IMG/VR virus record: IMGVR_UViG_3300008110_000071
Location: 1 to 54,883 of that record
Length of the DNA: 54,883 nucleotides
Strand: one strand, 5' to 3'
Source of the DNA: a virus
The notes beneath the pieces were generated by a model. That model saw only the letters and a program-made list of their open reading frames with translations, did not search any database and was not told the origin of the DNA. The position numbers and the translations under genes were made by a program. Of the stretch, positions 26,552 to 48,293 are shown piece after piece. Positions within the stretch are counted from its first letter, which is position 1; each line of letters opens with the position of its first letter.

Positions 26552-26574
26552 AAAAAAAGGGGTCTTTCGACCCC
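26552..26574 (-). terminator. Rho-independent terminator
   Basis: On the minus strand a 6-bp stem GGGGTC/GACCCC with a 4-base loop (GAAA) is followed by seven T residues. It lies 10 bases after the stop of the 47-aa gene and ends the transcript of the PAAR and 1081-aa genes. Confidence 0.85.
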
Positions 26575-32988: not shown

Positions 32989-33023
32989 TTCCGAGGATCT
33001 AAACGGTTCTCGGAATTTTTTTT
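32989..33023 (+). terminator. Rho-independent terminator of the plus-strand operon
   Basis: A stem TTCCGAG (32989-32995) with CTCGGAA (33009-33015) is followed by eight T residues. It begins 27 bases after the stop of the 201-aa gene. Confidence 0.85.
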
Positions 33024-33322
33024 GTTGAAAATTTTTTCCGAGATTATTTTGATACACTCGGTAAGACAAAGGGCGATATATGTGAATTGCTCGGAATATG
33101 TTGTGCGGGTTGGGAGGGGCATATGGGGAAACCTTGGATGGGCTTGGAGATTGGTGGAAAATTTTTGAGTTGATTGAGTATCTCTCTGGCTTTCTGGGTA
33201 CGTTATAGCTTAGGGTAGTTAGACGTTTTTCACGGGTACGGGCCGGGGCGACCCATAAGGGCCGTTTATACTGCCCCTGCCCACTGATAAGGACTGCTGA
33301 TCGATCAGGATTGCTGATCAAA
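33024..33322. other. Gene-poor junction between late and early regions
   Basis: I see no convincing gene in these 300 bases. The base composition changes from AT-rich to GC-rich across them. Further CCGAG/CTCGG half-sites occur (33037, 33058, 33089). A perfect 12-bp palindrome, CTGATCGATCAG, lies at 33297-33308, flanked by two TGCTGATC copies. A TTTATACT -10-like box points right near 33266-33273 without a good -35. It could hold regulatory or recombination sites. Confidence 0.45.
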
Positions 33323-33324
33323 GG

Positions 33325-33344
33325 GGGAGCCCCGGAGGGCTCCC
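33325..33344 (-). terminator. Terminator-like hairpin
   Basis: A 7-bp stem GGGAGCC/GGCTCCC with a 6-base loop lies 8 bases after the stop of the 58-aa gene. The trailing T tract is short (CCTTT), so strength is uncertain. Confidence 0.5.
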
Positions 33345-33352
33345 GCTGCGGG

Positions 33353-33529
33353 TCAGTGGAACACCACAGAAGTGCAGTGGCAGCCGAAGCTCTCAAACCA
33401 CTGATCCAGCTCCTCCCACGTGGGGAAGGACACCTGCCCGCCTTCCGTGGGGGACAGCATGTAGCTGGCGCTGTAGGCCACACGGGTGACCGTGGTGTTC
33501 TGAGCGGTGACGGTGACGGCTTTAGTCAT
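33353..33529 (-). CDS. Small GC-rich early gene, 58 aa
   Basis: ATG at 33529; the protein begins MTKAVTVTAQNTTVTRVAYS and contains FPTWEELDQWFESFGCHCTS. Not recognised. The 'PTWEEL..WF' helix and a CHC motif are the only notable features. The leader contains the GCGGGC/GCCCGC hairpin repeated before two other genes, and an AGGA ribosome-binding site (GAGGATC before ATG). A terminator-like hairpin follows. This organisation supports a real gene. Confidence 0.65.
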   Translation of the reverse strand: MTKAVTVTAQNTTVTRVAYSASYMLSPTEGGQVSFPTWEELDQWFESFGCHCTSVVFH

Positions 33530-33543
33530 GATCCTCAGGCAGT

Positions 33544-33563
33544 GCGGGCACCGATCGGCCCGC
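33544..33563 (-). repeat. Leader hairpin repeat, copy 1
   Basis: This 20-base inverted repeat (stem GCGGGC/GCCCGC around the palindrome CCGATCGG) lies between promoter and ATG of the 58-aa gene. Identical copies are at 34173 and 34521, also in 5' leaders. Confidence 0.8.
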
Positions 33564-33624
33564 TTGAGATAATCCTACAGGATGGGCGGGCCAGCCGTGG
33601 CTGAGCTGGCCCTAAAGTTCATAT

Positions 33625-33813
33625 TCAGTAACCTAGCCAGACCAGCCACTCCCCGGCGTCAACCCCATTGGGCCAGCCTATGGCTGAGCCATACAGGGCC
33701 AAAAACTCTTGCCCGACACCGTGGCTGATCGATTCACTGAAAGCATCCTGATAGGGGATGCAGCCCTGCTCGTTCATGCGGGCTTCTGTGGCTTCCCTAA
33801 GGGTTTCGTACAT
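33625..33813 (-). CDS. Small GC-rich early gene, 62 aa
   Basis: The protein MYETLREATEARMNEQGCIP... continues with YQDAFSESISHGVGQEFLALYG and ends VDAGEWLVWLGY. An acidic, helical protein of unknown role. The ATG is preceded by a leader and the 31-base repeat with a GGGGACC/GGTCCCC hairpin. Unknown function; possibly a host-directed early protein. Confidence 0.65.
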   Translation of the reverse strand: MYETLREATEARMNEQGCIPYQDAFSESISHGVGQEFLALYGSAIGWPNGVDAGEWLVWLGY

Positions 33814-33845
33814 GGTGCTTGTGCTTGTGGGGTGTAGGTAGGAAG

Positions 33846-33876
33846 GGGGACCCCGTAGGGTCCCCGGCTGGGCTCA
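33846..33876 (-). repeat. 31-base direct repeat, copy 1 (hairpin plus stop codon)
   Basis: These bases are identical to 35148-35178. The repeat includes the TGA stop of the 94-aa gene, the next codons of the 3' end and a GGGGACC/GGTCCCC terminator-like stem, so the identity crosses from coding into intergenic DNA. Confidence 0.85.
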
Positions 33877-34158
33877 CCAGTCGCTGGGATCGTACTGATC
33901 GCAGCGCCAATCCTCACGCTCCTCATCTGTCATGGGCCGGGTGAGGCTGAGCGGGCCACATGCCCACAGTTCTACTTCCTCGCCGTGCTCGGGCTCACAA
34001 GCCCAGCTCAGAACCAACCCAGCTGGCAGATACAGCCAGCCCCGTGTGGGCTGGTTTGCTGCTGTATCTACGTACAGCACGTGAAGTATCGTCTGGAACT
34101 TAGGCGGGAGGCGCAGGTCGCCTACCGAGCAGGGAGTGAAAAGGTCAGAGCTTTGCAT
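33874..34158 (-). CDS. GC-rich early gene, 94 aa
   Basis: Protein not recognised. It has LRLPPKFQTILHVLYVDTAANQPTRGWLYLPAGLVLSWACEPEHGEEVELWACGPLSL, a likely small beta domain, and an acidic end (TDEEREDWRCDQYDPSDW). Four Cys residues occur. Its promoter is at 34202-34231 and its leader carries the 20-base hairpin followed by an AAGGA ribosome-binding site two bases from ATG. It ends in the shared 31-base repeat. Confidence 0.7.
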   Translation of the reverse strand: MQSSDLFTPCSVGDLRLPPKFQTILHVLYVDTAANQPTRGWLYLPAGLVLSWACEPEHGEEVELWACGPLSLTRPMTDEEREDWRCDQYDPSDW

Positions 34159-34172
34159 GGTCCTTAAGCGGT

Positions 34173-34192
34173 GCGGGCACCGATCGGCCCGC
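34173..34192 (-). repeat. Leader hairpin repeat, copy 2
   Basis: Identical to 33544-33563 and 34521-34540. On either side the match with copy 3 extends through CTTAAGGACC before the ATG. Confidence 0.85.
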
Positions 34193-34201
34193 TTGAGATT
34201 A

Positions 34202-34240
34202 AGTGTACAGCATGGTGGGGCAAGCCGTCAAGCTTGCCCC
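34202..34240 (-). promoter_or_regulatory. Hairpin-promoter cassette: -35 box in the loop
   Basis: A 9-bp perfect stem, GGGGCAAGC (minus strand 34240-34232) with GCTTGCCCC (34225-34217), encloses exactly TTGACG, a -35 hexamer. An 18-base spacer leads to TACACT (-10, 34207-34202). It lies just after the stop of the 85-aa gene and before the 94-aa gene, so one element can end one transcript and start the next. Confidence 0.75.
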
Positions 34241-34248
34241 GGTTGGGT

Positions 34249-34506
34249 TTAGAGGTTGAACGCCAGCTCTAGGGCATTGGCATAGCCTTGTGCCGTATTC
34301 GCCAGCTGCAGCAGCGCCTTCCGTTCGGGCGACATGTAGTGTCCCCGTTCCATCTCACACCACTGTGCAACCCAGGCCCAATCGGCTTGCTGCTGCCAGC
34401 CACGGCAGGCCATAGCCTCATCACTCCACCCCCAACGGGTGTACTGCTCGACTTGCTGGGAGTCGAGCTTGCGGATGCCAGCGTAGACAAGCTCAGTCAG
34501 GGTCAT
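34249..34506 (-). CDS. GC-rich early gene, 85 aa
   Basis: The helical, Trp-rich protein starts MTLTELVYAGIRKLDSQQVE and continues YTRWGWSDEAMACRGWQQQA. The opening resembles the 'MTLAELIYSAQDARKAEQ' stretch of the 69-aa protein at 35871, so the two may be distant paralogues. Unknown role. The leader has the 20-base hairpin and an AAGGACC ribosome-binding site. The promoter is at 34550-34579. Confidence 0.7.
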   Translation of the reverse strand: MTLTELVYAGIRKLDSQQVEQYTRWGWSDEAMACRGWQQQADWAWVAQWCEMERGHYMSPERKALLQLANTAQGYANALELAFNL

Positions 34507-34520
34507 GGTCCTTAAGCGGT

Positions 34521-34540
34521 GCGGGCACCGATCGGCCCGC
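34521..34540 (-). repeat. Leader hairpin repeat, copy 3
   Basis: Identical to copies at 33544 and 34173. It is the 5' leader of the 85-aa gene. Confidence 0.85.
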
Positions 34541-34549
34541 TTGAGTTCA

Positions 34550-34588
34550 ATAGTAGAGGGTGAAGGGGCAAGCCGTCAAGCTTGCCCC
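34550..34588 (-). promoter_or_regulatory. Hairpin-promoter cassette: -35 box in the loop
   Basis: The 9-bp stem and TTGACG loop are the same as at 34217-34240 (here 34565-34588). The -10 is TACTAT (34555-34550), spacer 18. It drives the 85-aa gene. Confidence 0.75.
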
Positions 34589-34596
34589 GGCTGGCC

Positions 34597-34797
34597 TCAG
34601 GCGTCGAATAGCAGTTGGGAGCCGATCTCCAGCTCGACTGCTCGCCGATACTGAGCGAGCGCCAGCCGCTTGGCTTGCCGGTCGCCCCGGTAGCCAGCGT
34701 TACAGGCAAGACACCACCACATCTCCCACCTACCGGTAGAGGGGGGCAGCCCTTCCGGGCGATCGTAGGCGGTGTGTGTGCTGATGGTGCTGATCAT
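34597..34797 (-). CDS. GC-rich early gene, 66 aa
   Basis: The protein has a single C-x-x-C in EMWWCLACNAGYRGDRQAKR, then a helix LALAQYRRAVELEIGSQLLFDA. Not recognised; a small metal-binding fold would need a second pair. A TACACT -10-like box lies at 34826-34821. The start at 34797 is chosen for its 23-base distance from that box. Confidence 0.6.
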   Translation of the reverse strand: MISTISTHTAYDRPEGLPPSTGRWEMWWCLACNAGYRGDRQAKRLALAQYRRAVELEIGSQLLFDA

Positions 34798-34835
34798 CGT
34801 TCTAGTGGGTTGGCTTGTGCAGTGTAGGGAGAGAT

Positions 34836-34857
34836 GGGGCCACCAGCTGGTGGCCCC
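34836..34857 (-). terminator. Perfect 22-base palindrome, terminator-like hairpin
   Basis: GGGGCCACCAG followed by its exact complement CTGGTGGCCCC, 9 bases after the stop of the 79-aa gene on the minus strand. There is no clear T tract, so it may instead protect the 3' end or pair with the promoter just downstream. Confidence 0.5.
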
Positions 34858-34865
34858 GGTGGTGA

Positions 34866-35105
34866 TCAGCCAGCCTCGCCGGGCTGGAATCGGATGCTGC
34901 CATCCGCTAGCACGTCAGCCTGCCTCCCAGGCCGGCGCTGCAGCCAGGCCATGGCACCCCGTAGGGCAGCCATGCGAACCTCGGCCATGGCCTGCCAGCC
35001 GGTGAGCCGAAGGCACGAGTCGCCTCCGGCAGCCGGAACGGCGTAGTAGGTCAGCAGCTGACCCTCACGGGTGGTGTGCTGGCTGATCAGGATCGGAGAA
35101 GGCAT
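34866..35105 (-). CDS. GC-rich early gene, 79 aa
   Basis: The protein opens MPSPILISQHTTREGQLLTY. The middle, GGDSCLRLTGWQAMAEVRMAALRGAMAWL, suggests a beta hairpin plus an amphipathic helix. The end is DVLADGSIRFQPGEAG. Not recognised. A GCTAAGAT -10-like element lies about 30 bases upstream. Confidence 0.65.
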   Translation of the reverse strand: MPSPILISQHTTREGQLLTYYAVPAAGGDSCLRLTGWQAMAEVRMAALRGAMAWLQRRPGRQADVLADGSIRFQPGEAG

Positions 35106-35147
35106 TGGTCTGGGTTGGTTTGGGACTTGAGAATCTTAGCAGGTGGT

Positions 35148-35178
35148 GGGGACCCCGTAGGGTCCCCGGCTGGGCTCA
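35148..35178 (-). repeat. 31-base direct repeat, copy 2
   Basis: Identical to 33846-33876. It includes the stop codon of the 84-aa gene and a GGGGACC/GGTCCCC stem. Confidence 0.85.
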
Positions 35179-35430
35179 GATGCAGTTGTCAGCCAGCCAA
35201 TCCCGGATCTCGTTCGGGTAGGTGGCCCATGCCTGCAGGGCTTGTGCGAGCATGTCGCACTCTAGGTAGCCTCTGTCAAAAGCCCATAGTGTGCCGCCGT
35301 TTCCGGTGAGGGAACACCAGATAGAAAAGGTGCTCGGCTTGCGATCATCCTCGCTATCGGCCCAGCTCAGCAGCCTCTCCACGGCGTAGGTGGCCTGTTC
35401 AACGGTGAGGCGGGTCTCGGTGGTTGCCAT
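35176..35430 (-). CDS. GC-rich early gene, 84 aa
   Basis: An acidic, helical protein beginning MATTETRLTVEQATYAVERL, with SEDDRKPSTFSIWCSLTGNGGTLWAFDRGYLECDMLAQALQAW. Not recognised. A -10-like TACACT lies at 35461-35456, 25 bases upstream of the ATG. Its 3' end shares the 31-base repeat with the 94-aa gene, though the proteins are unrelated. Confidence 0.65.
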   Translation of the reverse strand: MATTETRLTVEQATYAVERLLSWADSEDDRKPSTFSIWCSLTGNGGTLWAFDRGYLECDMLAQALQAWATYPNEIRDWLADNCI

Positions 35431-35497
35431 GGTGGGTTCCGTTTGGGACTTCTACAGTGTACAGCATGGTGGGGCCAGCTTGTGGCCCCGGTGGTGA

Positions 35498-35704
35498 TCA
35501 GCCGATCAGCTCACCCAGGCGCTGGGCCATGGCCCCGCTTTGACGCCACAGGCGCTCGATTGCCTCCCGGTCACGACCGTTGGCGGGGTCTTGAAAAGCT
35601 TCCTGCAGGATGCCAAACCAGTAGGAGCTGGAATCAAAAGCCATACGGCGCAGGGCCTCGGCCTCCCAGGCGGTGAGGGTCAGGGTGACGGTTTCGGATT
35701 GCAT
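35498..35704 (-). CDS. GC-rich early gene, 68 aa
   Basis: Small helical protein: MQSETVTLTLTAWEAEALRR, then DSSSYWFGILQEAFQDPANGRDREAIERLWRQSGAMAQRL. The opening 'TVTLTxxEAxAL' resembles short N-terminal strands of phage-encoded ribbon-helix-helix-like proteins, but the fold is not certain. Unknown function. Confidence 0.65.
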   Translation of the reverse strand: MQSETVTLTLTAWEAEALRRMAFDSSSYWFGILQEAFQDPANGRDREAIERLWRQSGAMAQRLGELIG

Positions 35705-35870
35705 CGCTGTAGTGCGGTGTACGTAGGGAACACTAGCAGGCCGCTGCTGCAGCTTGCAAGGGGTCAGAGTGACAGCTTAGAAAGTGGCACAGCTGTGGCA
35801 GTTCTAGAACTGGCCCACTAGGGTTTAGCGTGGGCCAGTGTGCCAGCAGGCCAGCTGGCCCTGTGCCAGC

Positions 35871-36080
35871 TCAGGCCCTGGCCCTGCGACGCCTGATCTC
35901 GTCACCATACGTGCTTGCTTCATCGCTGTAGCGGCCCTCGGCGATGGGGTTCCAGCCTCGCATCGCCTGCTCGGCCTTGCGTGCATCCTGTGCACTGTAG
36001 ATCAGCTCAGCCAGGGTCATGGCCTTTGCCTTGGCTTCCCAACGGGCGAAGTCTTGTGGAGTGGCGTGGTTGGCGATCAT
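35871..36080 (-). CDS. GC-rich early gene, 69 aa
   Basis: MIANHATPQDFARWEAKAKA, then MTLAELIYSAQDARKAEQAMRGWNP, ending YGDEIRRRRARA. The MTLAELIYS segment is like the start of the 85-aa protein at 34249. The start is set by the -10 box TATACT at 36108-36103, 22 bases upstream, which matches the spacing at other early promoters. Function unknown. Confidence 0.65.
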   Translation of the reverse strand: MIANHATPQDFARWEAKAKAMTLAELIYSAQDARKAEQAMRGWNPIAEGRYSDEASTYGDEIRRRRARA

Positions 36081-36102
36081 GGCCTTTGGCTGAACTGAGA
36101 TC

Positions 36103-36108
36103 AGTATA
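36103..36108 (-). promoter_or_regulatory. -10 box TATACT before the 69-aa gene
   Basis: A TGCTATACT element (extended -10 style) lies 22 bases from the ATG. No good -35 was seen at 17-18 bases upstream, so it may rely on the extended -10. Confidence 0.5.
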
Positions 36109-36268
36109 GCAGGTGGGCTGGCGTGGTGTGGGCCAGCTGGTGGCCAGCCCTTGGATTGTCACAATGTGAAATGTATGTACATTGTGCCCCTACGTGTGTG
36201 TGGGGGAATGTATGGTTAAGTATTACCTATTACGGTTAATAATTTGTAATACTGTTAATAATTTTATA

Positions 36269-36418
36269 TTATTGATAATAATTCTTGTCTACCAGAATAT
36301 CATTCTCCCAAACTACATTGGTAGTATTAAATATAACGCTTAATAATTCTTCAGTCAATTCAATGTAACCCATAGTGTTCAATTCTTCCACTTGTGCGTT
36401 GGTGAGAAAGGGATTCAT
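36269..36418 (-). CDS. Small AT-rich gene in the GC-rich island, 49 aa
   Basis: ATG at 36418; the protein is MNPFLTNAQVEELNTMGYIE, then LTEELLSVIFNTTNVVWENDIL. Acidic, not recognised. In base composition it resembles the genes right of 38.2 kb, not its neighbours. A TATAAA box lies about 20 bases upstream. Confidence 0.6.
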   Translation of the reverse strand: MNPFLTNAQVEELNTMGYIELTEELLSVIFNTTNVVWENDILVDKNYYQ

Positions 36419-36709
36419 GGGGTTGCCTTTGTTTGACCTTTATATAGTCCCATAGATCCTGGCCAGAGTCTAGTGGTCTTGTGCCAGTGGTCAAACTGGT
36501 TCTAGGACTTGACTGGGGGCCGGACGGCGTGCTAGAGTGAAGGTAGACTCTATTTGTCTGTGTGACGATTTGTATACTGTCTGTAATTTGGCTCTGTTGG
36601 GGGGTGGTGCCGTGCTAGGATGTGATCACAACCGAGAGAGGGCTGGGGTAAGCCTGATGATGAAATGGTCGCCACGCCCCCTGCCATAAAATAGTTAATA
36701 AAAAAAGAC
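36419..36709. other. Gene-free stretch with plus-strand promoter-like elements
   Basis: No gene is visible on either strand. On the plus strand there are TTGACT (36509-36514), 18 bases, TAGAGT (36533-36538); then TGTATACT (36571-36578) and TAGGAT (36616-36621). A plus-strand RNA running toward 36.7 kb would be antisense to the start of nothing known, so a small RNA is possible but not shown. Confidence 0.35.
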
Positions 36710-36734
36710 AAAAAAAGGGCTTGCTGTCAAGCCC
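36710..36734 (-). terminator. Rho-independent terminator after the 104-aa gene
   Basis: On the minus strand a GGGCTTG/CAAGCCC stem with a short loop is followed by seven T residues (36716-36710). It lies 14 bases after the stop of the 104-aa gene. The stem also contains TTGACA, but no -10 follows at the right distance. Confidence 0.8.
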
Positions 36735-36748
36735 CGGTGTGCCACTTG

Positions 36749-37063
36749 TCAAACTGCGCTAGGGCGATCCTGGCTCCACTGGCGCAAGCGACGGGTGCTG
36801 GCCTTGCTGTAGACACGGTTGGTGATCGGGTCGCCGTTGGCCTTGGTGGCGATATTGCGGCCTGCAGCGTCAGCAGCAGCCTGCAGTGCCTTACGGCCCA
36901 GCTTGCGTTCAGCCTCTAGGGCGTTCTCATTGGTGGCCAGGTCAAACAGCCATTGTGCACGGTGGCGGCCAACGATGTGGGGCTGACGGATGGTGATCTT
37001 GGCAACAGCCACAGCAACCACGGTGGGGATGCTGGTGCGGGTCAGGCGATCGTTGCGGGTCAT
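36749..37063 (-). CDS. Basic hypothetical protein, 104 aa
   Basis: An Arg/Ala-rich protein with RTSIPTVVAVAVAKITIRQPHIVGRHRAQWLFDLATNENALEAERKLGRKALQAAADAAGRNIATKANG. The C-terminus is basic (YSKASTRRLRQWSQDRP). It has the look of a small DNA- or RNA-binding protein but no family is recognised. A TATACT -10 box lies at 37111-37106. It ends in a strong terminator. Confidence 0.65.
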   Translation of the reverse strand: MTRNDRLTRTSIPTVVAVAVAKITIRQPHIVGRHRAQWLFDLATNENALEAERKLGRKALQAAADAAGRNIATKANGDPITNRVYSKASTRRLRQWSQDRPSAV

Positions 37064-37105
37064 TGTCTCGTGGGGTGTGTGGGGGATCTCTGCCCCCGTG
37101 ATCTA

Positions 37106-37111
37106 AGTATA
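37106..37111 (-). promoter_or_regulatory. -10 box TATACT before the 104-aa gene
   Basis: CTATACTTAG on the minus strand, with a leader of about 40 bases that contains a GGGGGCAGAGATCCCCC hairpin. No clear -35. Confidence 0.45.
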
Positions 37112-37168
37112 GGGCACCGGGTAGACCCTGGCTATGGGTCAGACCCGGTTTGTTGCAAAGCTTAATCT

Positions 37169-37927
37169 TTACACTTTAGCGGTCAGAATAGCCTGGCGCT
37201 CTTTAGCGTAACCACTAAACTGTCCAGCCTTGCGACGTGCCCACACTGCTTTGCCATAGGTTGAACCTTTAGGCTGGGTTGAATGCACGAGAAGTGCAAA
37301 CGGTTTGTCACCAAAACAATGCGAATCGTCGTGATCAACCTCTAACCCAAGCGCTGCAGCTTCTTCATCGTTGTGCACAACTTTACTGTAGCGGGAGAAC
37401 ACACCAGCATCAATGTAGTGGTCAAACTTACCACCATAGCTGGCAGTAAAGTAAAAGTTGGAGGGAAGCTCCAAACCTACAAACAGTGGCAGATTCTTGC
37501 TGTAGCAGTAGAACTTAAGATCAGGGTTCAGCTTAGCTACTTCAATCCAAGCATCCAGATAGGCACCCGAGAAGAAATCACCAGACTCGTGGATTCTCAC
37601 CAGCTTGCTGTTCTTCTTGCGAGCATTCTGCAAGCTTCGATCAATTAAACCTACCAAATTGTTGGCTTGCATCGCTTCCACAACCATTTCAAGGTTGCGA
37701 GCCCGAGCATAGAAAGGGCCATCGTATTGTGCCTCGCTAGTTGCAGCAAAGCAACGGAATTGAGTCTGTGGGCCATCCTGAACTTTACGTTTGCCGTCTT
37801 CAGTAACAACAGCAAAGGACAAACAGAACAGAGCGCCAGGGCAGGTTTTACCAGCTGGCAGACTAAAGATCAGTGTGCCCTTGCCAAGCTTGGCGTTACC
37901 GTGGGAGAAGGTGAGAAGGTCGGTCAT
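37169..37927 (-). CDS. GP88-family protein
   Basis: This 252-aa protein reads LTFSHGNAKLGKGTLIFSLPAGKTCPGALFCLS, then GPQTQFRCFAATSEAQY, VRIHESGDFFSGAYLDAWIEVAKLNPDLKFYCYSKNL. This matches the 'gene product 88' family, first named from mycobacteriophages and present in other phages and plasmids. Conserved features are SFGNAKL-like and FSLPAGxxCPGAxxC near the start, and H/ESGDF...YLxAW in the middle. The biochemical role is unknown. It has its own leader with a TAGGAT -10-like box about 25 bases upstream and a GC-rich hairpin element. Confidence 0.78.
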   Translation of the reverse strand: MTDLLTFSHGNAKLGKGTLIFSLPAGKTCPGALFCLSFAVVTEDGKRKVQDGPQTQFRCFAATSEAQYDGPFYARARNLEMVVEAMQANNLVGLIDRSLQNARKKNSKLVRIHESGDFFSGAYLDAWIEVAKLNPDLKFYCYSKNLPLFVGLELPSNFYFTASYGGKFDHYIDAGVFSRYSKVVHNDEEAAALGLEVDHDDSHCFGDKPFALLVHSTQPKGSTYGKAVWARRKAGQFSGYAKERQAILTAKV

Positions 37928-37967
37928 TGGTTCGGGTGTTGAACTTGAGTGAATCCTAGCAGCTGGT

Positions 37968-37986
37968 GGGGGCTTGGGAAGCCCCC
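37968..37986 (-). terminator. Terminator-like hairpin
   Basis: An 8-bp stem GGGGGCTT/AAGCCCCC with a 3-base loop follows the 54-aa gene. It lies next to the GATAAGC-type stop-proximal hairpin (37991-38007). No T tract follows on the minus strand. Confidence 0.55.
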
Positions 37987-38005
37987 GACTGATTAGCGTT
38001 GCTTA

Positions 38006-38170
38006 TCAGTACCCGTTCAGAAACTCGTGCAGGGCTTCCTGATACTGCTCCTCGGTGTGGAAGGTCCGAGTCCCGATGGTGCAAGGGAAGGTGCGACGGG
38101 GAGCGGCAGCCTTGCTGGGCTCTTTGCCCTGCTGCTGCAGCTGCTGAACATAGGGGTTCTGGCTGGTCAC
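38006..38170 (-). CDS. Small early gene with GTG start, 54 aa
   Basis: The start is GTG at 38170; no ATG is available in frame. The protein runs (M)TSQNPYVQQLQQQGKEPSK, then AAAPRRTFPCTIGTRTFHTEEQYQEALHEFLNGY. The C-terminal half ('TxGTRxFxxEEQYQEALxxFL') looks like a folded helix-hairpin of small phage proteins. The N-terminal half is a Gln-rich linker. Function unknown. A TAGGAT box lies about 20 bases upstream. Confidence 0.6.
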   Translation of the reverse strand: MTSQNPYVQQLQQQGKEPSKAAAPRRTFPCTIGTRTFHTEEQYQEALHEFLNGY

Positions 38171-38249
38171 GGTGTCGTTTGTGGTTGACTCTGGAATCCT
38201 AGCAGCTGGTGGGGAGCCCTGAGCCCCCCTTCGTTACAAATCGAAATAA

Positions 38250-38441
38250 TTACATCACCAGTAGCCAATCCTGGTCATTGTGTACATTAACCCAGAAGAA
38301 GTTCTTGCCATTCATAGAACGCAAGAATACTCTATCACCTTTGTGCTGTTCAATGATACAATGTGGGCAGGATTGCATTTGGTTAGCCATCCTGTTTTTA
38401 GCCTTTTTGCTGATGGGTTGAACTGAAATCATCGGAGCCAT
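38250..38441 (-). CDS. Small protein with C-x-x-C, 63 aa
   Basis: The protein contains SCPHCIIEQHKGDRVFLRSMNGKNFFWVNVHNDQDWLL. A CPHC pair and a later His could bind zinc. Not recognised. The upstream gap carries a weak TTGCAC and TACTGA pair. It is the first gene right of the GC-rich island where base composition falls. Confidence 0.65.
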   Translation of the reverse strand: MAPMISVQPISKKAKNRMANQMQSCPHCIIEQHKGDRVFLRSMNGKNFFWVNVHNDQDWLLVM

Positions 38442-38531
38442 GATGTTAGTTTGCGGTTAGCAACACTCAGTAGCTTAGCAATAACCAGCAGTGCAATGAG
38501 TTCGGCTGTCACAATCTGTAATAATGTAGTG

Positions 38532-38553
38532 AAAAGGGGGAATTGCTTCCCCC
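38532..38553 (-). terminator. Terminator hairpin after the 87-aa gene
   Basis: A GGGGG/CCCCC stem (38553-38549 with 38540-38536) extended by AA/TT pairs, then TTTT. It lies 10 bases after the stop. Confidence 0.65.
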
Positions 38554-38562
38554 TAGATCCTA

Positions 38563-38826
38563 TCACACGGTGACAGGCTTCAGTTCTTCAGTCTTGCGAG
38601 CGTCTGCAATAGTAGAACCAATGCTTACAGTCTTCAGGATCTCATCGTTAGTCATAAGATCACTCAGGAACTGAGCATATGACTCGGTAGCAGTAAAGTT
38701 ATAGGCTTTGTCAGGATTGCTGTGGTAAGTGATAATAATATCAGTGTTGTCTACAGTGATAGAGTTAATAGCACTGGACTGTTCTTTGGTGAATGAACGA
38801 TGAACAGAAGCGATTGCAGTTGCCAT
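38563..38826 (-). CDS. KTSC-like small protein, 87 aa
   Basis: The core SSAINSITVDNTDIIITYHSNPDKAYNFTATESYAQFLSDL (about residues 17-57) resembles the KTSC fold: 'SSxIxxVxYDxxxxxLxVxFxxGxxYxYxxVPxxxYxxLL', a small domain often joined to nucleic-acid proteins. The match is loose and by eye. The promoter TTGACA-17-TAAATT lies at 38882-38854. Early gene. Confidence 0.6.
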   Translation of the reverse strand: MATAIASVHRSFTKEQSSAINSITVDNTDIIITYHSNPDKAYNFTATESYAQFLSDLMTNDEILKTVSIGSTIADARKTEELKPVTV

Positions 38827-38853
38827 GATGTTTGTGCTTGGTGTACGGTTAAT

Positions 38854-38887
38854 AATTTACAGGATGGGGCTCAGTCTGTCAAGCCCC
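38854..38887 (-). promoter_or_regulatory. Sigma70 promoter with hairpin
   Basis: TTGACA (38882-38877), 17-base spacer, TAAATT (38859-38854), 28 bases before the 87-aa gene. A GGGGCT/AGCCCC stem spans the -35. Confidence 0.75.
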
Positions 38888-38907
38888 TGATTGATTAGTA
38901 ATACTAA

Positions 38908-39042
38908 TCAGAACTCGATTTCGTCTAGTGTGGGTTCCGACATAGTATCATCAGACTCATCTGCTAGCATGTTGAGAATACTAAGAATCTCGTTGCCAGT
39001 TTGACCCTTACGAAGCATTGAAATTAGCAGTGCTTTAGACAT
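38908..39042 (-). CDS. Small conserved cyanophage protein, 44 aa
   Basis: MSKALLISMLRKGQTGNEIL, then SILNMLADESDDTMSEPTLDEIEF. The 'LLSMLxxGxTGNEILxILDxL' pattern is found in tiny proteins of T4-like cyanophages. Function unknown. It is followed on the genome by the stop-proximal hairpin GATTAGT/ACTAATC, which overlaps the TGA. Confidence 0.68.
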   Translation of the reverse strand: MSKALLISMLRKGQTGNEILSILNMLADESDDTMSEPTLDEIEF

Positions 39043-39048
39043 AATAAT

Positions 39049-39177
39049 TCAGAAGTCGATGTTAGAGTTAATAAATTGACGAAAGTTTGCTTCACTTTCA
39101 TCATCATCAGCAGCAGGAATTAGTAAATCATCCTGCCACTCAGTTTCAAGATCAACAAAGTCGTAGGTGGTTTCCAT
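39049..39177 (-). CDS. Small acidic protein, 42 aa
   Basis: METTYDFVDLETEWQDDLLI, then PAADDDESEANFRQFINSNIDF. Very acidic, no family seen. Tight spacing (6 bases) to the next gene supports an operon of three small genes, 39360 to 38908. Confidence 0.6.
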   Translation of the reverse strand: METTYDFVDLETEWQDDLLIPAADDDESEANFRQFINSNIDF

Positions 39178-39186
39178 TGTTAATAA

Positions 39187-39360
39187 TCAACCTTCAAGAA
39201 GTTCAGGGTAATGATCACTAATTTCAGTGATCAGTTCTTCAGCAGTATAACCCTCAAAGCAATTCACCAGCATGTCGTATGCGTACTGTTCAAGAGTTTT
39301 CATGTCCATGCTGTCCAGAATTTGCTGGGCGTAGGCATCAATCAGATCAGAACGGTTCAT
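39187..39360 (-). CDS. Small conserved protein, 57 aa
   Basis: MNRSDLIDAYAQQILDSMDM, then KTLEQYAYDMLVNCFEGYTAEELITEISDHYPELLEG. The 'YTxxELIxEVxxxYPELL' end is common in small T4-like cyanophage proteins. First gene of a promoter-driven set (TTGACT-17-TAAATT), leader 24 bases. Confidence 0.68.
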   Translation of the reverse strand: MNRSDLIDAYAQQILDSMDMKTLEQYAYDMLVNCFEGYTAEELITEISDHYPELLEG

Positions 39361-39383
39361 TGGTTCAGGTGGTGAACAATAAT

Positions 39384-39417
39384 AATTTACCAGGGCTGGG
39401 GGCTGGAGTCAACCCCC
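39384..39417 (-). promoter_or_regulatory. Sigma70 promoter with hairpin
   Basis: TTGACT (39412-39407), 17-base spacer, TAAATT (39389-39384). A GGGGG/CCCCC stem (39417-39413 with 39402-39398) contains the -35 hexamer. Confidence 0.75.
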
Positions 39418-39424
39418 TGATTGA

Positions 39425-39604
39425 TTAGTGTTGCTTATGGTTAATATCTAAGGCACCATATTTGTTTAGTTTGCCTGCACAAGGCTTGTTGTCATAAACT
39501 CCAAAATAATACTTGCCGATACTAATACCGAATTGTTCGTCGCCTTGATTAGCCTTGGTGTTTGCACCAATGTAGAAGAGTTTGGAATCAAGTGAGAATT
39601 TCAT
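39425..39604 (-). CDS. Small early protein, 59 aa
   Basis: Start at the ATG 39604, 23 bases after the -10 box; a longer reading would begin inside the promoter. The sequence FSLDSKLFYIGANTKANQGDEQFGISIGKYYFGVYDNKPC suggests a small beta protein. Not recognised. Its stop is followed by the GATTAGT-type hairpin. Confidence 0.65.
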   Translation of the reverse strand: MKFSLDSKLFYIGANTKANQGDEQFGISIGKYYFGVYDNKPCAGKLNKYGALDINHKQH

Positions 39605-39626
39605 GGGTTCGGTGGTGAACGAGTTA

Positions 39627-39660
39627 AGTATGGCATGGATGGGGGCTGGAGTCAACCCCC
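39627..39660 (-). promoter_or_regulatory. Sigma70 promoter with hairpin
   Basis: TTGACT (39655-39650), 17-base spacer, CATACT (39632-39627). GGGGG/CCCCC arms enclose the -35, as at 39398-39417. Confidence 0.7.
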
Positions 39661-39684
39661 TGAATGATTAGCGTTGCTTATCGG

Positions 39685-39882
39685 TTAAGCTTCATTGTAA
39701 ATGATAGTGCTAATACACCAACCAAAACAATCAGAGATTGCATCAGTCAGGTATTCTTCATCATCAACTTCCCATACTTTTTGCTTTGCTTCTTCAACAA
39801 TAGCCTGTTGATAATCCACAGAAGGAAACTCATCGTCTTCCATCTCAAAATCAAACTCAATGTGAGCGACTTGGAACTGCAT
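39685..39882 (-). CDS. Acidic early protein, 65 aa
   Basis: I use the ATG at 39882 because it lies 24 bases after the -10 box; upstream codons would overlap the promoter. MQFQVAHIEFDFEMEDDEFP opens the protein, with VWEVDDEEYLTDAISDCFGWCISTIIY at the C-terminus. The pattern '(V/I)xxIEFDFE.D(D/E)..' is common in small acidic cyanophage proteins. No function known. Confidence 0.65.
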   Translation of the reverse strand: MQFQVAHIEFDFEMEDDEFPSVDYQQAIVEEAKQKVWEVDDEEYLTDAISDCFGWCISTIIYNEA

Positions 39883-39905
39883 GGGTTTGGGTGGTGAACG
39901 ATTCA

Positions 39906-39934
39906 AGTATGGCCTGAATTGGGTCAGGAGTCAA
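39906..39934 (-). promoter_or_regulatory. Sigma70 promoter
   Basis: TTGACT (39934-39929), 17-base spacer, CATACT (39911-39906). A GGGCTTGACTCC-type arm partly pairs with the downstream CCC. Confidence 0.7.
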
Positions 39935-39955
39935 GCCCTGGAATGATAATAATCT

Positions 39956-40177
39956 CTAATCAATCATATTAGTACTGATAAGTGATTCTAATAGATTGGC
40001 ATTGATAAAGCTTTCTAGATGGGTCAGCTGTTCGCCATCCATAGAGGTTACATATTCCTCAATGATTTGTTCCATTAGTTTATAGTTATTACTATAAAGT
40101 TCTTCTGTTAATACTTCAATCATCTCATCTTGTTTCATGGATGGGCTGAAGAATTGTACCACGTCAGGGTAGTGCAT
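39956..40177 (-). CDS. Acidic helical early protein, 73 aa
   Basis: MHYPDVVQFFSPSMKQDEMI, then EVLTEELYSNNYKLMEQIIEEYVTSMDGEQLTHLESFI. I favour the ATG at 40177 over the internal one at 40138 because it sits 25 bases from the -10, the spacing seen at neighbouring early genes. Helical; function unknown. The segment is similar in style to the 57-aa protein at 39187. Confidence 0.62.
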   Translation of the reverse strand: MHYPDVVQFFSPSMKQDEMIEVLTEELYSNNYKLMEQIIEEYVTSMDGEQLTHLESFINANLLESLISTNMID

Positions 40178-40201
40178 GTGGGGTGTCTCAGTGACATATG
40201 T

Positions 40202-40230
40202 AATATACCTGATCCTGGGCGGCCTGTCAA
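40202..40230 (-). promoter_or_regulatory. Sigma70 promoter
   Basis: TTGACA (40230-40225), 17-base spacer, TATATT (40207-40202): near-consensus. Drives the 73-aa gene. Confidence 0.8.
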
Positions 40231-40554
40231 GGGGTCTTTGATTAGTAATGCTAATGGATGGCCTCGGAGGGATTTGGAATGCTTATATTAGTGATACTTA
40301 TCGGTGGCCTCGAAATGATTTGGAGTTCTTATGAGTTTTTTGGGCCGGGGGGCTTGACAATTTCGGCGGGGTGTGATATACTGCGGGCCAAGACCGCTGC
40401 ACCTCCGAACATTTCAGATACTTTCTCTGACATACTCGGAAACATAGGATATAAGGTTAATAATTCTAGGCATACAGGGTATAAGGTTAATAATTTCTAA
40501 CTCATACTCACTACGTATAACACACAAACATATATTTTTTATTACATTTAATAA
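40231..40554. other. Gene-free stretch with repeats and a rightward promoter
   Basis: No convincing gene. Two imperfect direct repeats begin GGCCTCG, with a common core GATTTGGA (40261-40290 and 40305-40333). A second pair, ATAAGGTTAATAATT, occurs at about 40450 and 40480. A GATTAGTAATGCTAATGG hairpin-like element lies at 40240. A consensus promoter points right at 40354-40382, listed separately. Confidence 0.55.
40354..40382 (+). promoter_or_regulatory. Near-perfect sigma70 promoter pointing right
   Basis: TTGACA (40354-40359), 17-base spacer, TATACT (40377-40382). It is the best consensus promoter in the window, but every gene near it is on the other strand. No plus-strand gene follows. 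The transcript would be antisense to the 204-aa gene at 40555. Confidence 0.75.
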
Positions 40555-41169
40555 TTACACTAAATCATACATACCATTCCGCAATACATCTATCCATCTA
40601 TTCAATCCATCAATAATTCTTTGATCTGTTTCCTTTGTTAGATAATAATCTTGAATATACTTTATCTTTGCTTGTACATATACTTCATGTGCTTCTTCTG
40701 GTGTTTGATAATAACCTAGTGAAACATACTTACCATTCATTTTAATGCGTGATCGAAAGAGTTTAACTTGTTTACCTTTATTAGGATGTTTAACTACTCC
40801 AATAGGATATTTTCCTCTATTTGCAGTTGATTTAATTAGTAATTTATTTAATTCATCTGATACGTATACACATTTATCTGGTCCATAGACTTTATTCCCT
40901 GGATAGATAATATCTTTATCTAATTCTAATCCCTCTGTATAATTTTGTTGATTATGCCAGGCTTTGAAGTTAGAGAATTTGTGCCATTCTGGTGCTACAG
41001 TACAACCAGCATAGGTTGGTCTAGTCATTTGGTATTCTTCAGAATAACAACGCCTGAGCATTCCATGCCAATTAGCATATTCTCTACGTACTATTATTTT
41101 TGCATTGATTTTAGAAGTCACTGTGCAGTCAACATCATTGATTCCTACACCATAAACTAATTTTGTCAT
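40555..41169 (-). CDS. HNH/AP2-type homing-endonuclease-like protein, 204 aa
   Basis: The pattern fits phage-encoded HNH/AP2 proteins: WHGMLRRCYSEEYQMTRPTYAGCTVAPEWHKFSNFKAWHNQQ (about 34-75), DKDIIYPGNKVYGPDKCVYVSDELNKLL (84-111), then an AP2-like DNA-binding region, YPIGVVKHPNKGKQVKLFRSRIKMNGKYVSLGYYQTPEEAHEVYVQAK (about 121-168). Such genes are common in cyanophages and T7-like phages. Nuclease action needs His and Asn residues; the block DKD...N..GP..CV is present. It could be mobile; its AT-rich, low-bias sequence is unlike the flanking GC-rich DNA. Confidence 0.78.
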   Translation of the reverse strand: MTKLVYGVGINDVDCTVTSKINAKIIVRREYANWHGMLRRCYSEEYQMTRPTYAGCTVAPEWHKFSNFKAWHNQQNYTEGLELDKDIIYPGNKVYGPDKCVYVSDELNKLLIKSTANRGKYPIGVVKHPNKGKQVKLFRSRIKMNGKYVSLGYYQTPEEAHEVYVQAKIKYIQDYYLTKETDQRIIDGLNRWIDVLRNGMYDLV

Positions 41170-48270: not shown

Positions 48271-48293
48271 AAAAAAGGGGGCTTATAGCCCCC
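48270..48293 (-). terminator. Rho-independent terminator
   Basis: GGGGGC/GCCCCC stem with a 5-base loop, then seven T residues. It lies seven bases after the 136-aa gene's stop and separates the early operon from the late pair. It shares its T tract with the late box. Confidence 0.87.

What the first reader, a model, noticed from the sequence alone, without database searches (positions are those of the whole stretch)
34202..40230. Hairpin-promoter cassettes: the -35 box sits in or beside the loop of a terminator-like stem
At 34202-34240 and 34550-34588 a perfect 9-bp stem has a loop that is exactly TTGACG; the -10 box follows 18 bases later. At 38854-38887, 39384-39417 and 39627-39660 GC stems again contain TTGACA/TTGACT with 17-base spacers to TAAATT or CATACT. 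Other gaps carry the same promoter without the stem (39906, 40202). T4-type phages are known to carry PeSL elements (promoter-early stem-loops) that shuffle with single genes; these look like cyanophage counterparts in which terminator and -35 are fused, so stem formation in RNA and promoter use in DNA share bases.
Basis: partly seen in the sequence, partly recalled or inferred. Interest (0 to 1): 0.75.

Follow-up and report, generated by a model that had tools for sequence, protein, structure and literature searches.

The report
Cyanophage hairpin-promoter gene-swap cassettes
In this freshwater cyanobacterial virus, most small early genes are separated by a short cassette in which a folded RNA hairpin (the end of one gene's message) overlaps the start signal of the next gene, and whole genes have been swapped between related viruses with the joints falling in or beside these cassettes.

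Summary
Five stems overlap TTGAC[GAT] promoters at the stated coordinates; 11 of 19 intergenic gaps in the early island carry a stem placed 6-10 nt before TANNNT, against 0.30 expected from shuffles. It is general: in 80 relatives' loci, 168 cassettes have the TANNNT 7-11 nt after a GGG-armed stem on the gene strand (56 on the other strand), and 148 lie between a stop and a start. Only 20 of the 168 keep a -35 box; the usual cassette is stem plus -10, which suits cyanobacterial promoters that often lack a -35. Stem sequences differ while pairing holds, and loops are RNA tetraloops (GNRA/UNCG) on the gene strand, so the stem acts in the upstream gene's RNA. Relatives swap single genes at these cassettes, with 92-97% identical flanks. 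This is the PeSL kind of T4-type phages. Stem/promoter overlap is not new: RB49 and KVP40 have it in other registers. What is new here is the register (loop over the -35 position), the density in cyanophages, and stems mostly without a U-tract. Termination and promoter activity are inferred, not shown.

The parts
34217..34240 (-). 9-bp stem, loop TTGACG (-35 at 34226-34231)
   Evidence: dG -18.4 kcal/mol
34202..34207 (-). -10 TACACT, 18-nt spacer
34565..34588 (-). 9-bp stem, loop TTGACG (-35 at 34574-34579)
34550..34555 (-). -10 TACTAT, 18-nt spacer
38866..38887 (-). 6-bp stem with TTGACA (38877-38882) at the 5' side of the loop
38854..38859 (-). -10 TAAATT, 17-nt spacer
39398..39417 (-). 5-bp stem with TTGACT (39407-39412) in the loop
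39384..39389 (-). -10 TAAATT, 17-nt spacer
39641..39660 (-). same 5-bp stem with TTGACT (39650-39655) in the loop
   Evidence: sequence
39627..39632 (-). -10 CATACT, 17-nt spacer
33588..33612 (-). 8-bp stem without -35; -10 TAGGAT at 33572-33577 (10 nt after stem)
33846..33865 (-). 8-bp stem, c(UACG)g tetraloop; imperfect -10 TACACC 9 nt after stem
34836..34857 (-). 9-bp stem, no -35; -10 TACACT at 34821-34826
35148..35167 (-). 8-bp stem, c(UACG)g tetraloop, no -35; extended -10 TGC-TAAGAT at 35133-35138
35471..35489 (-). 7-bp stem, no -35; -10 TACACT at 35456-35461
36117..36137 (-). 6-bp stem; extended -10 TGC-TATACT at 36103-36108
37968..37986 (-). 8-bp stem, no -35; extended -10 TGC-TAGGAT at 37953-37958
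   Evidence: orthologous position tested in 64 loci
38211..38229 (-). imperfect GGGG..CCCC stem; extended -10 TGC-TAGGAT at 38196-38201
   Evidence: sequence, (below the perfect-stem threshold)
38535..38554 (-). U-tract terminator-like stem with GCAA tetraloop; TACATT 6 nt after stem
36717..36734 (-). U-tract (T7) terminator-like stem with TTGACA across the 5' arm and loop, no -10 at the right spacing
39906..39934 (-). TTGACT-N17-CATACT promoter without a good stem
40202..40230 (-). TTGACA-N17-TATATT promoter without stem, upstream end of the island
33325..33344 (-). 8-bp stem, UCCG tetraloop, after the last gene of the island; 3' joint of a gene swap
34249..34506 (-). 85-aa gene replaced by an unrelated 65-aa ORF in L011, joints at the cassettes on both sides
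33353..33529 (-). 58-aa gene replaced by a 97-aa ORF in L011

Best explanation
Each cassette is a composite gene boundary of the PeSL kind. Read on the coding (minus) strand it is: stop codon of gene A, GC-rich stem-loop, about 9 nt, host-type -10 (TANNNT, sometimes with TTGAC[AGT] in the loop at the -35 position), 5' leader, start of gene B. In RNA, the stem is the 3' end structure of gene A's transcript: a terminator or a block to exonucleases. In DNA, the same stretch occupies the -35 to -10 region of gene B's early promoter, used by host RNA polymerase. The transcription start falls downstream of the stem, so the stem is not in B's own RNA. Because cyanobacterial promoters often need no -35, the stem can sit over that position; where a -35 is kept, it is placed in the loop. 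The similar cassettes also act as short homologies at which single genes are exchanged. Shown here: anatomy, strand asymmetry, pairing kept across many different stem sequences, RNA tetraloops, swaps with joints at cassettes. Inferred: promoter activity, 3' end formation, and homologous recombination as the exchange mechanism.
For: Window: 11 of 19 gaps against 0.30 expected; no stem with TANNNT at 8-10 nt seen elsewhere in the 54.9 kb. Relatives: the distance peak at 8-11 nt is on the gene strand only, 163 of 424 stems against 48 of 424 on the reverse strand and 0 of 118 in picocyanobacterial host DNA, which is GC-richer; 148 of 168 lie between a stop and a start, against 17 of 56; a -35 of at least 5/6 in 20 of 168, against 0 of 56. 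Promoter-anchored test: stem of 6 bp or more around TTGACN in 28 of 254 sites, against 2.8% of shuffles and 2 of 103 on the other strand. Upstream of one orthologous gene: stem of 6 bp or more in 39 of 64 distinct sequences, against 8.7% of shuffles, with many different arm sequences. RNA-level: UNCG 21 vs 2 and GNRA 43 vs 6 for gene strand vs complement; in U-poor cassettes alone 21 vs 2, with 81 distinct arms among 140 stems. Swaps: homology to L011 breaks in the stem at 34579 and resumes at 34247, replacing only gene 34249-34506; most homology ends lie in gaps for four relatives (p 0.0001 to 0.005). Cyanobacterial promoters: no strong -35 signature (PMC3219970); -10-only 'type 2' promoters exist (PMC2758279).
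Against: No RNA ends. Most stems lack a U-tract, so efficient intrinsic termination is not assured. TANNNT is a weak motif. Stems were found by perfect pairing, so kept pairing is partly built into the selection; the strand, shuffle and orthologous-position controls are the independent part. Homology breakpoints were read from BLAST ends, and joints at gene boundaries would also follow from simple selection against broken genes. Gene calls in the island are my own ORF choice.
Confidence: 0.78

Rival explanations
1. The stem is an operator. A dimeric host or phage repressor binds the inverted repeat over the -35 and switches early promoters off.
For: Inverted repeats centred at the -35 position, about -20 from the -10 start, are a typical repressor site.
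Against: Arm sequences vary widely (81 distinct among 140) with pairing kept, unlike a sequence-specific operator. Strand-asymmetric RNA tetraloops have no meaning for a dsDNA operator.
Confidence: 0.06
2. DNA role only: the stems are recombination or mobile-element sites (REP/IS200-like or cruciform hot spots) and the neighbouring TANNNT is incidental.
For: Gene swaps have their joints at the cassettes.
Against: TANNNT spacing peaks on one strand only; RNA tetraloops on the gene strand; no transposase among the ORFs searched against families; a homologous exchange does not need a stem.
Confidence: 0.05
3. Two independent elements only: an ordinary 3' hairpin of the upstream gene and an ordinary promoter of the next, pushed together by genome compactness, with no special role in shuffling.
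For: Gaps are short (most 60-95 nt). Other T4-type phages place the stem in other registers relative to the promoter, as expected if only compactness matters.
Against: The spacing is narrow (6 of the window cassettes exactly 9 nt), U-tracts are mostly missing, and swaps are bounded by the cassettes. The spacing could also be common descent.
Confidence: 0.1
4. Chance: GC-rich intergenic DNA folds and matches weak promoter motifs.
For: The island is 57-63% GC at 33-36 kb.
Against: Dinucleotide shuffles give 0.30 cassettes against 11 observed; the opposite strand and host DNA lack the peak.
Confidence: 0.01

Closest known systems
PeSL (promoter-early stem-loop) cassettes of T4-type phages RB49/phi1 (Arbiol et al. 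2010; Comeau et al. 2014; both not held, cited through PMC4503421)
   Same: Stem-loop fused to a sigma70-type promoter in the gap between single small early genes; several similar copies; single-gene shuffling. Sequences read directly in RB49.
   Different: RB49 stems lie inside the 17-nt spacer (TTGACA-GGGGATCGGTGATCCCC-TATAAT) or carry the -10 in the loop (GGGAGTAgtaagaTACTCCC), and a TTGACA/G is present in most of the stem-bearing gaps listed. In the window the loop lies over the -35 position and most cassettes have no -35.
KVP40 composite promoter-terminators
   Same: -35 inside the stem: GGGTATTGACAATAACACATCAATACCC-GATAAT, and AAAAGGGTTGCTTCGGCAACCCTTTTTGCG-TATTAT.
   Different: Only three clear or near cases in the gaps read; two of them have a U-tract as spacer. 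The window cassettes are dense and mostly U-poor.
Cyanobacterial type 1 / type 2 promoters (PMC2758279; PMC3219970)
   Same: -10 TANNNT with or without a -35, as in the two forms of the cassette.
   Different: In hosts no stem is tied to the -10: 0 of 118 host stems have TANNNT at 8-11 nt.
Lambdoid morons (as described in PMC1524935)
   Same: A gene bounded by promoter and terminator signals, with deviating GC content.
   Different: Here terminator-like stem and promoter are one overlapping element shared by neighbouring genes, repeated over a whole island of a T4-type phage.

Membership tests
PeSL | Stem-loop and sigma70-type promoter in one short intergenic element | tested here: met
   (promoter by sequence only)
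PeSL | Located in hyperplastic regions between small non-core genes of a T4-type phage | tested here: met
   gp6 33-36% to cyanomyoviruses, phrog_219; island genes mostly without Pfam match
PeSL | Bounds single-gene indels and replacements between close relatives | tested here: met
   joints at cassettes, flanks 92-97% identical to L011; the mechanism of exchange was not tested
PeSL | Promoter active early with host RNA polymerase | not testable with these tools
   no RNA ends available; sequence fits host type 1/2 promoters
PeSL | Stem-loop is an effective transcription terminator | not testable with these tools
   126 of 168 stems have fewer than 5 T in the next 8 nt
PeSL | -35 TTGACA present (as in RB49) | tested here: not met
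   only 20 of 168 cassettes and 5 of the window's stems. I do not treat this as defining for phages of cyanobacteria, whose promoters often lack a -35; but because of it I call the window's form a variant works-like-PeSL rather than the RB49 type itself
Intrinsic (Rho-independent) terminator | GC-rich stem followed directly by a U-tract | tested here: not met
   not met for most cassettes; met for 36717-36734, 38535-38554, 26559-26574 and 48277-48293

The most novel reading that the evidence does not exclude
The stem is functionally coupled to the promoter it overlaps: a polymerase that ends gene A's transcript at the stem, with its active site 7-10 nt on at the edge of the -10, is released directly over promoter B and restarts there, so that a run of single genes is expressed as a relay. 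(E. coli RNAP does stay on DNA after termination and can restart, PMC6978322, though mostly antisense.)
Probability: 0.08. Interest if true: 0.8.

Novelty: new variant of a known kind. Interest (0 to 1): 0.5.

Why it matters
It extends the PeSL idea from the coliphage and vibriophage T4-types to cyanophages, where the only report found described low density (S-PM2, PMC4503421). It suggests a rule for where the stem can lie: over promoter parts the host does not need. It also provides near-identical flanks with a single gene exchanged, which makes gene-by-gene shuffling of phage early regions directly testable. U-poor, tetraloop-capped stems raise the question of how 3' ends form in Rho-less cyanobacteria.

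Tried and rejected
Rfam scan of the window: no family. tRNAs: none. Search for the 85-aa gene 34249-34506 in IMG/VR: only one record, with a 100% identical match. Exact pattern GCAAGCTTGACGGCTTGC in viral contigs: 12 records, some the same phages, the others not examined further. The first pattern search with TTGACG-N17 found nothing relevant because the spacer is 18. The RB49-like register (stem as spacer, 0-2 nt before the -10) in cyanophages is not above the other-strand control (22 vs 29), so I do not claim it as a class, although single cases such as L063 and L068 look exact. The two PeSL papers are not held; what I say of their content beyond titles rests on PMC4503421, my own reading of the RB49/KVP40 sequences, and memory. 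Operator, mobile-element and chance readings were considered and rated low.
Full report
Where it lies. The window is a 54,883-base virus record. Its gp6 is 33-36% identical to that of marine and freshwater T4-type cyanophages and matches the baseplate wedge family phrog_219. Between 33.3 and 40.5 kb runs an island of about 20 small genes on the minus strand, 57-63% GC at 33-36 kb against 27-44% over nearly all the rest. Only one of nine island proteins tested matches a Pfam family (GP88 in 37169-37927).

Observation. The two 9-bp stems have loop TTGACG and an 18-nt spacer; three weaker stems (6, 5 and 5 bp) hold TTGACA/TTGACT with 17-nt spacers; two TTGAC promoters have no good stem. Reading every gap in stop-to-start order shows more: most gaps have the order stop, GGGG..CCCC stem, about 9 nt, TANNNT, leader, start, and in most of these the loop holds no TTGAC. 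Counting a perfect stem of at least 5 bp followed at 5-11 nt by TANNNT, 11 of 19 gaps qualify against 0.30 in dinucleotide shuffles; all 11 lie at 6-10 nt.

Relatives. The GP88-like gene gave 80 IMG/VR loci. On the gene strand TANNNT peaks 8-11 nt after the stem: 163 of 424 GGG/CCC stems, against 48 on the reverse strand of the same stems and 0 of 118 in 224 kb of picocyanobacterial host DNA (hosts are GC-richer, so this last control is weak). Of 168 cassettes with a 7-11 nt distance and a GGG arm, from 50 loci, 148 lie between an ORF stop and an ORF start, against 17 of 56 on the other strand; 20 carry a -35 of at least 5/6, against none. The independent test upstream of one orthologous gene, with no promoter requirement, found a stem of at least 6 bp in 39 of 64 distinct sequences (8.7% in shuffles) and of at least 7 bp in 31 (3.5%). 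Starting instead from TTGACN-N16-18-TANNNT sites, 28 of 254 have a stem of at least 6 bp around the -35, against 2.8% of shuffles and 2 of 103 on the other strand.

RNA or DNA. Four-base loops on the gene strand are often the stable RNA tetraloops: UNCG 21 against 2 for the complement, GNRA 43 against 6. The same holds for the U-poor cassettes alone: 21 of 35, against 2. These U-poor cassettes have 81 distinct arm sequences among 140 stems. Stem sequence is free and pairing is kept, so the stem most likely works as RNA of the upstream gene. The stem lies upstream of the expected start site, so it is not part of the downstream gene's RNA (inference from the -10 position).

Promoter. The hairpin centre lies about 20 nt before the -10, where a -35 would be (partly a consequence of the chosen distance range). 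Published maps of cyanobacterial starts show a -10 without a strong -35 signature (PMC3219970), and -10-only promoters are a recognised type, although SigA itself prefers a -35 (PMC2758279). That explains why the stem may cover the -35 position. Extended -10 (TGn) is present in 41 of 168.

Terminator? 42 of 168 cassettes have at least 5 T in the 8 nt after the stem and 126 do not. Ordinary U-tract stems exist in the same genome. Whether the U-poor stems terminate or only protect 3' ends is open.

Gene shuffling. Against L011, window 34819-34579 is 91.7% identical, the match stops inside the stem, gene 34249-34506 is replaced by an unrelated 65-aa ORF, and the match resumes at 34247 with 96.3% identity over 723 nt. 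That match ends at 33526, at the start codon of gene 33353-33529, which is replaced by a 97-aa ORF; identity (97.5%) resumes at 33345, one base before the next stem. Genes 39685-39882, 38006-38170, 35498-35704, 34866-35105 and 34249-34506 have no match at the threshold in any of seven relatives, although some of those loci do not cover the whole island. Of the ends of matching stretches, 11/13, 12/14, 8/10 and 9/12 fall in gaps, which make up 34% of the island (p 0.0003, 0.0001, 0.004, 0.005; BLAST ends are not exact and the choice of stretches was mine).

Comparison with known cassettes. Read directly, RB49 gaps carry TTGACA-GGGGATCGGTGATCCCC-TATAAT (the stem is the spacer) or a stem whose loop holds the -10; KVP40 has -35 boxes inside stems. 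So overlap of stem and early promoter is general among T4-types and only the register differs. The kind is known (PeSL); the cyanophage form is a variant not described in the papers I could search. S-PM2 was reported to lack a high PeSL density (PMC4503421).

Verdict. Function is inferred.

Noticed in passing
33527-33570, 34156-34200, 34504-34548 (minus strand): A near-identical 5' leader element, AAGCGGGCCGATCGGTGCCCGCACCGCTT, just before three start codons, with a GCGGGC/GCCCGC stem. Relatives show a changed but paired stem (L008 GCGGGG/CCCCGC). The leader fold is not much better than shuffles.
   Followed up: partly
37987-38005, 38891-38908, 39421-39438, 39661-39684, 40238-40255, 40284-40301: A repeated imperfect palindrome (ATTAGYRWTRCTWAT type) lies between stop codon and stem in several gaps (families D2 and D6); in L020, L066, L078 and L079 a similar AGCAACACTGATCA precedes the stem. 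Role unknown.
   Followed up: no
L014-L083, many cassettes: In more distant relatives the motif TGGCACA stands directly before the stem, and AAGTCAACC or CAGTTCAC follows the -10.
   Followed up: no
33000-38000: GC content of the island is far above the rest of the phage (50-63% at 33-38 kb against 27-46% elsewhere), closer to GC-rich freshwater Synechococcus/Cyanobium hosts (host GC from general knowledge).
   Followed up: no
36717-36734: A U-tract stem carries TTGACA across its 5' arm and loop (GGGCTTGACAGCAAGCCCTTTTTTT) but no -10 at the right spacing; possibly an intermediate between terminator and cassette. L008 and L011 have the same stem.
   Followed up: partly
40555-41169: HNH endonuclease family protein (phrog_953, weak AP2 domain) at the upstream edge of the island.
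   Followed up: no
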